NCBI GenBank assembly: GCA_017551505.1
Contig: JAFZLL010000038.1
Span: 1-33,442, forward strand
Reading direction: 5' to 3'
Source of the DNA: Eubacteriaceae bacterium
Lineage (GTDB): Bacteria > Bacillota > Clostridia > Eubacteriales > Anaerofustaceae
Length of the DNA stretch: 33,442 nucleotides
The number at the start of each line of letters is the position of its first letter. Positions within the stretch are counted from its first letter, which is position 1. Below, in pieces: positions 1-6,562 of this stretch. The translations under genes and the position numbers were made by a program. Below the pieces are notes generated by a model. It made no database searches. It saw nothing but the letters and a program-made list of their open reading frames with translations, and was not told the DNA's origin.

Positions 1-1767
1 CCGGTTTCCGTCAGGGGGCAATTCTCCATGACGGATGAAGAAGAGGAGAGTTTCGTTTCCGGGCTCTTCTCGGAATTCTCCGAGATCTCCCAGTGCGTCG
101 TGCTGAACACCTGCAACCGTTTCGAGCTGTATTTCGACGGCAGCGAAGAGAATATCATCCCCGTCGAGAAAGCCCTGTGCTCCTTCAAAAGCGCTGATGA
201 GAAGGCCGTGAGGGAAAACAGCTTCACCTACAGCGGCGAAGACGCGATAACGCAGCTGATCACGCTCGCCTGCGGGATGGATTCGATGGTCCTGGGCGAG
301 GACGAGATACTTCGCCAGATAAAGGAAGCCTACGCAAAAGCGCACGACAAAGGCCGTACCGGTTTTGAATTCAATACGATCTTCAAAATGGCCATAACCG
401 CCGCCAAGGAGATAAAGACGCTCACGGGGCTGTCAATGACGCCGGTCTCGATAGGGACCCTGGCCGCCGCCGAAGCCGCCCGCTTTGGAACGGAAGGGAC
501 CGAGGTGAATGTACTGATAATGGGCATCACCGGAAAGATCGGCCTGATCACGGCGAAGAACGCCCTGGCACATGGAGGCATCCGGCTTACCGGTACGACG
601 AGGGCGAAGGATCTGAAGAGCCTGGACGTGGACGGCACACAGGTGCCGCTCTATCCCTTCGACGAGCGGTATTCCCTCTTTGACGGGGCGGATGTCATCA
701 TTTCCGCTACGAATTACGAAGGCCATACGGTCAGCAGGGACGAATTCGCAGCCTGCCTGAAGACAAAAAAGAACAGGCTGTTCATAGACCTGGCCGTTCC
801 CGCGGATATAGACCCGGCGCTCAGGGATGAAGAGGGATGCACGCTGCACGATATCGACTACTTCACTACCCTGGCCGAGGAAAACAACGAACTGAAAAAA
901 CAGAAAGCCGACCAGGCTGCCGAGAACGCCCGCATCTGGGAACAGAACATCATGAAGGAGCTGCGCATAAGGGAGGCCATCGACCTGATCCCCCGCTTCA
1001 AAAAGGTGATCAGCCAGGGCGACGCGGGCAAATTCATATATGACCTCAGGAAAAATACCACATTCTCGCAGATGCAGGATGTGGTGGAATACATCAAACA
1101 ATTCATCGACATAAACGAGGAGAAAATGAACCAGAAGAACTCTAGAGCATATTTCCCGCTCTACATAAAGGCGGAAAACATGAAGGTACTCATAGTCGGA
1201 GGAGGAAGCACGGCAACGCGCAAGGTCCGTTCCCTGTCCGATTATAAAGCCGACGTTACGGTCATCTGCGAGAATCCGTCCGACGAGCTGACAGCTCTGG
1301 AAGCATCCGGGAAGATAAAGGTAATCAACAGGGACTTCGAGATGTCGGATATCGATACGGGATATTTTTTGGTCGTAGCGGCTACCAACGATACGCCCCT
1401 CAACGCGGCCATCGCCGAAAGATGCTCCGATCTCGGCATCCTGACCGACATAGTCGATGACCCGCAGCTCTGCACTGCGCTGTTCCCTTCCATCGTGAAG
1501 TCGGGAGACGTCACGGCAGCCATCTCCACCAACGGAAAGAGCCCCGTGATAGCCAAATACCTCAAGAGCAAGGTCAGGGAGGCGCTTCCCGAAAATATCT
1601 CCGCAGTCAACGAGAGGATGAATTCCTTCCGGATCTACCTTAAGAGCAAGGTCAGCGACGTTGCCAGGCGCGGGGTGATCAACAACCAGATCCTCGCCAT
1701 GATCCTGGAGGACAACGCCGATGACGACCAGATAAAGCAGTTCATCGAAAAGGCCGCGAGGGAATGA
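1..1767 (+). CDS. hemA: Glutamyl-tRNA reductase fused to precorrin-2 dehydrogenase (5' partial)
   Basis: This two-domain enzyme does the first committed step of tetrapyrrole synthesis (glutamyl-tRNA to glutamate-1-semialdehyde, NADPH-dependent) and carries a siroheme-branch dehydrogenase at its C-terminus. The reading frame is open to base 1, and the codons before the ATG at 28 read PVSVRGQFSM, which matches the conserved HemA N-terminus (APVEIRE...), so the true start lies upstream of the window. The catalytic Cys is in NTCNR (codon 112-114), followed by GMDSMVLGEDEIL and a Rossmann loop GITGKIG that differs from the usual GxGxxG. The dimerisation region after about base 880 is shorter than normal. 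From about 1150 the protein is a CysG-N/Met8/SirC-type domain with IVGGGSTATRKV, TDIVDDPQLC and AAISTNGKSP. Whether it also inserts iron is not clear from sequence. The fused arrangement is known from clostridial hem clusters such as that of Clostridium josui. hemC starts one base after the stop. Confidence 0.93.
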   Translation, partial: PVSVRGQFSMTDEEEESFVSGLFSEFSEISQCVVLNTCNRFELYFDGSEENIIPVEKALCSFKSADEKAVRENSFTYSGEDAITQLITLACGMDSMVLGEDEILRQIKEAYAKAHDKGRTGFEFNTIFKMAITAAKEIKTLTGLSMTPVSIGTLAAAEAARFGTEGTEVNVLIMGITGKIGLITAKNALAHGGIRLTGTTRAKDLKSLDVDGTQVPLYPFDERYSLFDGADVIISATNYEGHTVSRDEFAACLKTKKNRLFIDLAVPADIDPALRDEEGCTLHDIDYFTTLAEENNELKKQKADQAAENARIWEQNIMKELRIREAIDLIPRFKKVISQGDAGKFIYDLRKNTTFSQMQDVVEYIKQFIDINEEKMNQKNSRAYFPLYIKAENMKVLIVGGGSTATRKVRSLSDYKADVTVICENPSDELTALEASGKIKVINRDFEMSDIDTGYFLVVAATNDTPLNAAIAERCSDLGILTDIVDDPQLCTALFPSIVKSGDVTAAISTNGKSPVIAKYLKSKVREALPENISAVNERMNSFRIYLKSKVSDVARRGVINNQILAMILEDNADDDQIKQFIEKAARE

Positions 1768-5133: not shown

Positions 5134-6402
5134 ATGATACATACTGAATCGGAAGCACTGTACAAGGAAGCCTGTAAGATGATGCCCGGCGGGGTCAACT
5201 CCCCCGTCAGGGCTTTCAAAAACGTCGGCACGACTCCCGTATTCATCGACCATGCCAAGGGAGATAAGATCTACGACGTGGACGGCAACGAATATATCGA
5301 TTACGTGTGCTCCTGGGGTCCGAACATCCTGGGTGCGGCGAGGGACGAGGTGATAAACGCGGTCAAAGCCGCCTGCGAGAGAGGGCTGACATACGGCGCT
5401 CCTACCAAGAAAGAGAGCGAGCTGGCCAAGCTGGTCATCAAGGCGACCGGATTCGTCGAGGTGCTCCGCCTCGTCAACAGCGGAACGGAAGCCGTAATGA
5501 GCGCCATCAGGGCGGCAAGAGGCTATACGGGCCGCGACCTCGTGCTAAAATTCAACGGCTGCTACCACGGACACTCCGACGGGATGCTGGTAAAGGCCGG
5601 ATCCGGGCTGCTGACGAACGCGGAACCCGACAGCGCGGGCGTTCCCAAAGCATATTCCGACTGCACCCTGGTTTGCGAATACAACTCTCTGGAAGAGGTC
5701 AGCGGGATCTTCGAGAAATACGGGGAGAATATCGCATGCATTATCGTGGAGCCCGTAGCCGCAAATATGGGTGTCGTCCCGCCGAAACCGGGCTATCTTC
5801 AGGGCCTGAAGGACATCTGCGAAAAGTACGGCGCGCTGCTCATATTCGACGAGGTGATCACGGGATTCCGTCTCGCCCCGGGAGGAGCCGCAGAATACTA
5901 CGGGGTGACGCCTGACCTCGTCACCTACGGCAAGATCGTAGGCGGAGGCATGCCTCTGGCGGTCTACGGAGGACGCGAGGAGATCATGAGAAAGGTCTCT
6001 CCGGACGGCTCTGTCTATCAGGCGGGCACTCTTTCGGGAAACCCCATCGCAGTCACTGCAGGCATTGAGACACTCAAGATACTGACCGAGAATCCCGATA
6101 TCTACACTGAGATCGACAGAAAGACCGGAGTGCTGGAAAAAGCATACAGGGAAGCCGCTGATTTTACCGTAAACAGAGTCGGTTCGCTGATGAGCGTCTT
6201 CTTTACGACCGGAAGCGTTTACGACTACCCGACGGTGGCCAAGTCGGACACAGCCCGTTTCGCCGAGTATTTCAAATTCATGCTGGAGCACGGCATTTAC
6301 TCCGCCCCGTCGCAGTTCGAGGCAATGTTCGTCAGCTGCGCCCATACGGATGAGGATATCGAAAAGACCTGCGAAGTCGTAAGGGAGTATTTCTCAAAAT
6401 AA
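5134..6402 (+). CDS. hemL: Glutamate-1-semialdehyde 2,1-aminomutase
   Basis: A pyridoxal-phosphate enzyme that converts glutamate-1-semialdehyde, the HemA product, to 5-aminolevulinate. The 422 residues begin with the family-typical MMPGGVNSPVRAF. The cofactor lysine is Lys267 in TYGKIVGGGMP, and the PLP-ring Asp is in LLIFDEVITGFR. NSGTEAVMSAIRAAR is also typical. AAGGAG sits 5 bases before the ATG. As last gene of the operon it supplies the aminolevulinate used by HemB. A run of hairpins follows the stop codon. Confidence 0.98.
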   Translation: MIHTESEALYKEACKMMPGGVNSPVRAFKNVGTTPVFIDHAKGDKIYDVDGNEYIDYVCSWGPNILGAARDEVINAVKAACERGLTYGAPTKKESELAKLVIKATGFVEVLRLVNSGTEAVMSAIRAARGYTGRDLVLKFNGCYHGHSDGMLVKAGSGLLTNAEPDSAGVPKAYSDCTLVCEYNSLEEVSGIFEKYGENIACIIVEPVAANMGVVPPKPGYLQGLKDICEKYGALLIFDEVITGFRLAPGGAAEYYGVTPDLVTYGKIVGGGMPLAVYGGREEIMRKVSPDGSVYQAGTLSGNPIAVTAGIETLKILTENPDIYTEIDRKTGVLEKAYREAADFTVNRVGSLMSVFFTTGSVYDYPTVAKSDTARFAEYFKFMLEHGIYSAPSQFEAMFVSCAHTDEDIEKTCEVVREYFSK

Positions 6403-6531
6403 CGCTTCAGGCAAAACTGCTGTGAAGTAAGCATGCTATCAGAACGCCTGGGTCCGAATATGATCCGGGCATCTGCTAAGCAGAATTGACAAAACAATAC
6501 CGGCCTGCTGCCCATGCAACGGGCCGGTATT
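6403..6531 (+). ncRNA. Candidate structured RNA (3' end of hem operon or leader of M24 gene)
   Basis: Four inverted repeats lie in a row. The first is 6404-6409 with 6423-6428, holding an inner GCA/TGC helix at 6411-6413 and 6418-6420. The second is a 9-bp stem 6446-6454 with 6462-6470 (two G-U pairs, 7-base loop). The third is a short palindrome at 6472-6484. The fourth is a perfect 10-bp stem 6496-6505 with 6522-6531. I do not recognise a known riboswitch class. The arrangement, folded domain then terminator-like stem then gene 31 bases later, would suit a cis-regulatory leader, but it could simply be the operon's 3' untranslated region. Confidence 0.4.
6496..6531 (+). terminator. Probable terminator hairpin after hemL / before M24 gene
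   Basis: AATACCGGCC at 6496-6505 pairs perfectly with GGCCGGTATT at 6522-6531 across a 16-base loop. The downstream T content is weak (TTGACT), so as an intrinsic terminator it would be inefficient or part of an attenuator. Strand is inferred from the flanking genes, both on +. Confidence 0.55.
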
Positions 6532-6562
6532 TGACTATCCGAAAACGAAGGGATCCAATAAT

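What the first reader, a model, noticed from the sequence alone, without database searches (positions are those of the whole stretch)
6403..6562. Chain of four RNA hairpins between hemL and the M24 peptidase
In 129 bases there are three folded segments followed by a perfect 10-bp GC-rich stem placed 31 bases before the next gene. It does not match a riboswitch class I recognise. A folded domain plus terminator-like stem just before a gene is the layout of a riboswitch or attenuator. A small RNA released from the 3' end of the hem operon is an equal alternative.
Basis: partly seen in the sequence, partly recalled or inferred. Interest (0 to 1): 0.5.

Follow-up and report, generated by a model that had tools for sequence, protein, structure and literature searches.

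The report
Transposon-end RNA in a terminator
The folded stretch after hemL looks like a worn copy of an undescribed RNA that marks one end of mobile DNA elements which splice themselves into bacterial transcription stop signals and bring their own stop signal along.

Summary
The fold is real (6435-6540: z -5.7, 0 of 200 shuffles as good), but it is probably no riboswitch for the next gene. The window's genome holds eight copies, mostly after unrelated genes such as tuf. Relatives occur elsewhere: 47 of 200 genomes of one family at E<=1e-5; no Rfam scan matched the element. In 55 members an 11-bp helix has 36 two-sided compensatory cells against 10.6 in shuffles, and G-U outnumbers A-C 156 to 18, pointing to an RNA on this strand. 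Upstream flanks are unrelated (1 similar pair), downstream flanks shared in groups (35 pairs): the RNA is the left end of mobile units. I located right ends for nine units. They carry the left motif inverted; seven of eight tested lie beside the 3' end of a large serine recombinase gene or remnant. In seven of nine the host flanks rejoin into a hairpin, mostly terminator-like. So these elements seem to insert inside terminators and bring an RNA fold plus a replacement terminator. The hemL copy is degenerate: a profile of foreign members recognises its 3' part (E 8.7e-7), but left arm, right end and recombinase are not detectable.

The parts
5134..6402 (+). hemL (glutamate-1-semialdehyde aminomutase), last gene of the hem cluster; the model match starts 18 nt after its stop
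   Evidence: Pfam Aminotran_3 2.5e-70 (the name hemL is from context); gap
6404..6428 (+). 5' hairpin CUUCAGGC..UGAAG; not beyond chance
   Evidence: z -1.13, 26 of 200 shuffles
6421..6545 (+). whole element: match to the covariance model of the RNA family
   Evidence: R3 81 bits, E 3.7e-21 (this copy was among the 11 training rows); profile of 45 foreign members matches 6457-6539, E 8.7e-7
6435..6481 (+). composite hairpin; in this copy it seems to replace the family's P1/P2 (only AUGCU/GGCAU of P1 could still form, by eye)
6463..6476 (+). conserved block ATCCGGGCATCTGC, most of it the 3' strand of helix P1 in the family
   Evidence: identical in the tuf copy; alignment A9
6496..6531 (+). terminator-like stem-loop, 16-pair frame with one mismatch in this copy; sequence shared with tuf, C60 and C38 copies
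6532..6541 (+). tail after the stem, similar among four paralogues (hemL, tuf, C60, C38); weak U-tract
   Evidence: no Pfam match at 1e-3, no PDB match at 1e-3

Best explanation
The stretch is a decayed copy of the left end of a family of mobile elements driven by DUF4368-type large serine recombinases (LSRs). These elements integrate at a TT/AA core in or at the loop of intrinsic terminator hairpins, mostly behind genes, which destroys the terminator. The left end is a structured RNA: helix P1, conserved internal-loop sequence RUAARACAGU, helix P2, single-stranded RACAGGRUUGG-AAA, then an intrinsic terminator. It is transcribed as the 3' end of the host gene's mRNA and supplies a replacement terminator, so the insertion is tolerated and the element is insulated from read-through. 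Behind hemL the mobile parts are gone; what remains is the 3' part of that RNA and its stem-loop, which I think now ends the hem transcript. Shown by computation: family, helix covariation, left-end position, split terminators. Inferred: transcription, termination, tolerance, and descent of this copy from such an element.
For: Second copy after tuf, 78% over 71 nt; 8 copies in the genome. Members not used for the model: G392 1e-14, G136 1.6e-14 and others; 47 of 200 genomes of one family. P1 on 55 rows: 84.8% of cells paired vs 79.5 shuffled, 36 two-sided cells vs 10.6, slid controls 36-53%; the four outer pairs, not in the model's structure, have 118 Watson-Crick, 58 G-U, 10 A-C, 31 other. 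Flanks: 1 similar pair among 56 upstream flanks, 35 among 53 downstream flanks, 25 members involved. Right ends with inverted motif. Left and right flanks complementary: mean 26.9 vs 17.7 in 56 mismatched pairings, 4 of 8 above all controls; A-run within 2-32 nt upstream in 31 of 47 foreign members vs 3, 2 and 6 of 47 in shifted windows. Rejoined flanks fold as one hairpin in 6 of 8, mean of all 8 -17.5 vs -8.6 kcal/mol for 56 mismatched joins, 5 of 8 below every mismatched join; a ninth also splits a stem (not folded). LSR near full length in L197, L213, L209, L226; domains Resolvase, Recombinase, Zn ribbon, DUF4368 in L197. DUF4368 remnant beside own copy C59. The element is absent from 29 hemL loci of relatives. 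Profile of foreign members hits the window copy.
Against: The window copy has no recognisable left arm (profile match starts at model position 38), no right end, no recombinase and no A-run or split stem; own copies have the A-run in 0 of 8. Two of nine units (L213 and the genome's own C59) show no split terminator, and L209 and L226 are reached by 6 and 4 of 56 control pairings. In 26 of 34 loci searched no right end was accepted, often for lack of DNA; stray pattern hits in L214, L219 and the window were judged chance. Core positions were chosen by eye. The profile test is not fully independent: its rows were aligned with a model that included own copies. Paralogues share terminator sequence, so part of the similarity is recent duplication. 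L226's rejoined stem lacks a T-run. With R1 only 1 of 12 other genomes of the window's family matched, weakly. No RNA data.
Confidence: 0.7

Rival explanations
1. Host 3'-UTR RNA family (terminator-linked, perhaps releasing a small RNA) that serves the cell; mobile elements merely insert next to it or picked it up.
For: 8 copies in one genome, most directly after unrelated genes such as tuf, hemL and an Lrp-like gene; no right end was found for seven of the eight; conserved unpaired sequence suggests a partner molecule.
Against: Downstream flanks are homologous among members, upstream flanks are not; the conserved motif recurs inverted at right ends; in the units that could be closed the RNA lies inside the split terminator, so it came with the insertion; absent from 29 hemL loci of relatives.
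Confidence: 0.15
2. Riboswitch or attenuator controlling the downstream M24-like gene.
For: Fold plus stem 31 nt before the gene; 17 of 55 members have a co-directional next ORF, and a few lie 9-33 nt before a TnpV or DUF6061 gene.
Against: Most copies precede convergent genes; I saw no other copy before an M24-like gene in the translations read (not searched for); no Rfam match on the element.
Confidence: 0.05
3. An ordinary intrinsic terminator whose upstream fold is chance.
For: Stem and position after a stop codon fit; hairpin 1 is no better than chance; with the terminator columns removed the foreign profile gives only E 0.018 for this copy.
Against: 78% identity with the tuf copy over 71 nt, including 14 identical bases before the stem; foreign profile E 8.7e-7 with next window hit 0.43; covariation of P1 in the family.
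Confidence: 0.08

Closest known systems
Multi-targeting large serine recombinases with DUF4368 (Durrant et al., PMC10083194; passages read; also PMC13137831, passages read)
   Same: Same domain set in the L197 recombinase; integrates at many sites; one of their integrases has a TT core and A/T-rich attB ends.
   Different: They describe relaxed specificity, with some more complex motifs in a supplement I could not read; the word terminator does not occur in either main text. Here the site looks like a whole intrinsic terminator palindrome, and the element end is a structured RNA. That the recombinases belong to the same clade was not tested by a tree.
Tn4451/Tn6104-type mobilisable transposons (TnpX, TnpV) (PMC3158075; passages read)
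   Same: Large serine recombinase and TnpV: a TnpV gene follows the RNA in L134 (Pfam) and in its relatives L165, L171 and L177.
   Different: 2-bp target reported for TnpX; no terminator targeting or end RNA in the passages seen (terminator: 0 occurrences). Whether TnpX carries DUF4368 was not tested.
Group IIC introns (recalled; only a search listing seen)
   Same: Mobile elements that use terminator stem-loops as targets.
   Different: Those are retroelements with a ribozyme and reverse transcriptase that insert beside the stem; here an LSR and insertion in the loop. No reverse transcriptase was looked for.
IS110-family bridge RNA (recalled, no call)
   Same: A structured RNA encoded in the non-coding end of a mobile element.
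   Different: The recombinase here is a large serine type, and the RNA is followed by a terminator; guide pairing was not tested.

Membership tests
RNA family described here (model R3) | Sequence profile from members of other genomes finds it | tested here: met
   E 8.7e-7 at 6457-6539, best hit in the window, next 0.43; 0.018 without the terminator columns
RNA family described here (model R3) | P1 5' arm with RUAARACAGU | tested here: not met
   Window reads AUCAGAACG; profile match begins at model position 38
DUF4368 LSR element, window copy | Right end with inverted motif, recombinase gene, split host terminator | tested here: not met
DUF4368 LSR element, foreign and C59 copies | Left RNA end plus right end with inverted motif | tested here: met
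   9 units: 8 among 34 loci searched by pattern, plus L164 by profile
DUF4368 LSR element, foreign and C59 copies | Recombinase gene or remnant at the right end | tested here: met
   tblastn: 7 of 8 units, not L210; L164 not tested
Terminator-targeting insertion | Host flanks rejoin into a hairpin around a shared core | tested here: met
   6 of 8 by folding, a ninth by sequence; not met in L213 and L203
Intrinsic terminator (window copy) | GC-rich stem followed by a U-tract | tested here: inconclusive
   Stem met; U-tract below the scan's rule
Riboswitch / Rfam family | Match to a known family | tested here: not met
Riboswitch | Conserved association with a co-directional downstream gene class | tested here: not met
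   17 of 55 co-directional, classes mixed
Riboswitch | Ligand binding | not testable with these tools
   -
3'-UTR-derived small RNA | Distinct short transcript | not testable with these tools
   no transcript data

The most novel reading that the evidence does not exclude
The end RNA is a junction-sensing switch. When integrated, the surviving 5' half of the host terminator (A-run plus CCCG-type arm) can pair with the CGGG of P1's 5' strand (seen by eye in many members, not tested), while in the excised circle a different sequence lies upstream and P1 forms with GCAUCUGUC. P1's many G-U pairs (G can meet C in one fold and U in the other) fit such a two-state design. The switch would set read-through of the element's own terminator, and so expression of genes such as TnpV, by whether the element is integrated or circular. 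The recombinase family would be natural terminator-specific integrases.
Probability: 0.2. Interest if true: 0.88.

Novelty: new variant of a known kind. Interest (0 to 1): 0.7.

Why it matters
If right, it says what a group of promiscuous large serine recombinases aims at: not loosely AT-rich DNA but intrinsic terminators, abundant and nearly neutral sites. It also shows a tidy bargain: the element breaks a stop signal and brings a new one with a conserved RNA. Both parts are directly testable, and recombinases with this domain are already used as genome-engineering tools, so their true target rule is useful. It also warns that 3'-end structured RNAs in intergenic scans can be mobile-element ends or relics.

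Tried and rejected
Riboswitch class: five Rfam scans, none on the element; the Gut-1 near-miss in L112 lies upstream of the element in short palindromes. GACAG/CUGUC pairing inside the element: rejected, because AAGAAAG replaces AAGACAG while CUGUC stays. Mini-hairpin P3 (CUGY..RCAG), built into R3: superseded by the longer P1, which uses the same bases. DUF6061 as general partner: 1 of 15 DUF6061 loci has a strong R3 match upstream, one more (L188) is weak. Loop-tail pseudoknot CYAA/UUGG: seen by eye in some members only, not tested. Public-genome pattern scan: 15 exact hits; the three I printed (L054, L059, L062) show no such stem by eye, the other 12 were not inspected. Viral contigs: pattern hits L142-L145 and L146 gave no R3 match at E<=1e-4, two further patterns found nothing; TnpV loci L177/L178 did match (E 8.6e-6), and of three DUF6061 loci one reached only E 0.054. 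Phage and plasmid collections: no blastn match with one foreign member. Orthologous spacers: blastn of the spacer found, besides the own genome, one 24-nt match in 100 relatives, and R3 found nothing in 29 of their hemL loci. R3 in the class: 82 of 391 genomes at E<=0.01, most of it in my view terminator noise; 16 of 391 reach 1e-7, four of which held training sequences. A9 also holds a few weaker ones (such as L121 and L139, 9.4e-7 and 5.4e-6). R2 gave 18 of 391 at 0.01, of which besides the own genome I kept three (G312, G111, G100). Rows dropped: A9 was limited to E<=1e-6 from 56 chosen sources (55 rows); L172 and L174 were left out of the profile. The gene cluster suggests a clostridial-type bacterium, but no call names the organism.

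Full report
Observation. The spacer between hemL (stop 6402) and the next gene (ATG 6563) holds a weak hairpin (6404-6428), a composite hairpin (6435-6481) and a terminator-like stem (6496-6531). The first does not beat shuffles; the stretch with the other two does. Rfam has nothing.

A family in the genome. Part of the spacer recurs once by blastn, directly after tuf, 78% identical over 71 nt. A two-sequence covariance model gives six copies in the genome, a six-sequence model eight, and R3 again eight. Seven of the eight follow a same-strand gene: tuf, hemL, a KH-domain gene, an Lrp-like gene, a dehydrogenase-like gene and two others (names other than tuf and hemL are my reading of translations). 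C59 does not; its upstream neighbour is on the other strand. The tuf, C60 and C62 copies face convergent genes, so a leader role is out for them.

A family elsewhere. R1 pointed to G063 (E 0.0096); R2 to G312 (9e-9), G111 (1.5e-5) and G100 (7e-4); these four share a longer consensus by eye. Model R3, trained on 11 sequences (seven of this genome, these four), then found members it had not seen: G392 1e-14, G136 1.6e-14, G116, G082, G330, G170, G171, G188, G106, G368, G225 and G155. With the own genome, G312, G111 and G100, 16 of 391 genomes of the class reach 1e-7. In one family of the class 47 of 200 genomes reach 1e-5. The distribution is patchy: with R1 only 1 of 12 other genomes of the window's own family matched, and weakly, and 29 hemL loci of relatives have no R3 match. 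That fits a mobile origin better than an inherited operon feature. Rfam scans of 25 of these loci gave no match on the element.

Structure. In 55 aligned members the consensus is helix P1 (GGYRGnUGYuC / GGGCAnCUGYC, often prolonged past a one-base bulge by CRUAA/UUAYG), an internal loop RUAARACAGU, a variable helix P2 (GUAAUU/AAUUAC, GUGUUA/UAACAC, GUUAAA/UUUAAC; read by eye, not counted), single-stranded RACAGGRUUGG-AAA, and a terminator. P1: 84.8% of cells pair (79.5 shuffled; 36.2-53.4 when slid), and 36 cells have two-sided changes (10.6 shuffled; 0 of 500 as high). Wobble cells are G-U rather than A-C, 156 to 18, and 58 to 10 in the four outer pairs that the model did not contain. Without the 11 training rows the figures are 127 to 12 and 46 to 7. 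An inverted repeat kept only as DNA should not prefer G-T over A-C on one strand, so I read this as selection on RNA of this strand.

Left end of mobile units. Among 56 members, upstream flanks (up to 600 nt) are similar in one pair, downstream flanks in 35 pairs among 53 available, involving 25 members. The downstream groups carry TnpV or DUF6061 (Pfam), XRE-like or resolvase-like genes (my reading), or cargo such as chromate transporters with an ArsR-type regulator (L210) and a GNAT-like gene (L198, my reading). In L197 an 8-kb unit ends with a 608-aa large serine recombinase (Resolvase, Recombinase, Zn ribbon, DUF4368). Right ends carry ACTGT(C/T)TTAY, the inverted copy of the left motif RTAARACAGT, after a short hairpin. 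The pattern came from L197 and L210; over 34 loci it gave eight ends that I accept, and stray hits in L214, L219, the window and elsewhere in L197 and L203 that I do not. A profile of the eight adds L164 (E 1.3e-17) over 51 loci and touches several left ends weakly on the opposite strand, as an inverted repeat should. By tblastn the recombinase is near full length in L197, L213, L209 and L226, C-terminal only in L229, L211 and L203, not found in L210, and seen as an N-terminal piece at the edge of L199. So several units look like internal-deletion derivatives. L203 is this genome's own C59 copy.

Insertion into terminators. Foreign members have an A-run within 2-32 nt before the element in 31 of 47 cases, against 3, 2 and 6 of 47 in shifted windows, usually followed by a GC-rich arm (by eye). 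In L210 the left flank AAAAATGCCCGGCTGCC is answered 1.9 kb later by GGCAGCCGGGCATTTTT; L197, L229, L211, L226 and L209 behave alike. Own left-right pairings score 26.9 on average, 56 mismatched pairings 17.7. L197, L210, L229 and L211 exceed every control; L209, L226, L203 and L213 are reached by 6, 4, 13 and 48 of 56. Rejoined flanks fold as one hairpin in 6 of 8 units, with the TT or AA core inside the loop in five and at the loop's edge in L197; the mean of all eight is -17.5 against -8.6 kcal/mol for mismatched joins, and 5 of 8 lie below every mismatched join. I chose the core by eye. L164 (AATCCCCGC / GCGGGGATT) makes it 7 of 9 (not folded). L213 and L203 do not fit. L226 has the stem but no T-run.

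The window copy. A profile built from 45 foreign members finds it at 6457-6539, E 8.7e-7, the best place in the window, but only from model position 38 on; with the terminator columns removed the E-value is 0.018. The rows were aligned with a model that included own copies, so the test is not fully independent. Left arm, right end and recombinase are not detectable. I therefore call it a degenerate relic. That it descends from an insertion is inference from its kinship with C53 and C59, the two canonical copies (60 and 62 bits), and from its absence at other hemL loci. That it terminates hem transcripts is inference from its stem and place.

Mechanism. Shown by sequence: element position, ends, split terminators, RNA helix. 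Inferred: the recombinase integrates at terminators; host transcription enters the left end and stops at the element's terminator; selection keeps an RNA fold because read-through, or the difference between integrated and circular states, matters. The conserved single-stranded parts have no explanation yet.

Literature. Durrant et al. (PMC10083194, passages) report a multi-targeting clade of which most members carry DUF4368, one integrase with a TT core and A/T-rich ends, and others with more complex motifs shown in a supplement. PMC13137831 (passages) uses such enzymes in bacteria. The word terminator is absent from both main texts. C. difficile elements with TnpX- and TnpV-like genes are in PMC3158075 (passages). 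The listings for serine recombinases with terminators, DUF4368 and structured-RNA surveys (PMC8040213 passages) showed me no report of this RNA or this target. Supplements could not be read and subscription journals are mostly not held, so an existing report cannot be excluded.

Noticed in passing
L203:5369-6058 (-), G000:C59: Remnant of a DUF4368 large serine recombinase between the RNA copy and a right end in the window's own genome.
   Followed up: yes
window 28-1767: One ORF joins glutamyl-tRNA reductase with a siroheme-synthase-type NAD-binding domain.
   Followed up: no
   Followed up: partly
L005:3129-3162: A GGCATGACC..GGTCATGCC hairpin between the tuf copy and the convergent gene resembles the hairpin of right ends (E 0.0016); the tuf copy may keep a worn right end, or this is the convergent gene's terminator.
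   Followed up: partly
L110:527-590 (-): Strong Rfam match to pemK RNA (RF02913) near another member.
   Followed up: no
L112:439-515 (-): Tandem short palindromes just upstream of the element score near the Gut-1 threshold (45.4 of 50 bits).
   Followed up: no
A9, loop of P2 and tail UUGG: A number of members could pair a CYAA in the P2 loop with the conserved UUGG before the terminator (by eye).
   Followed up: no
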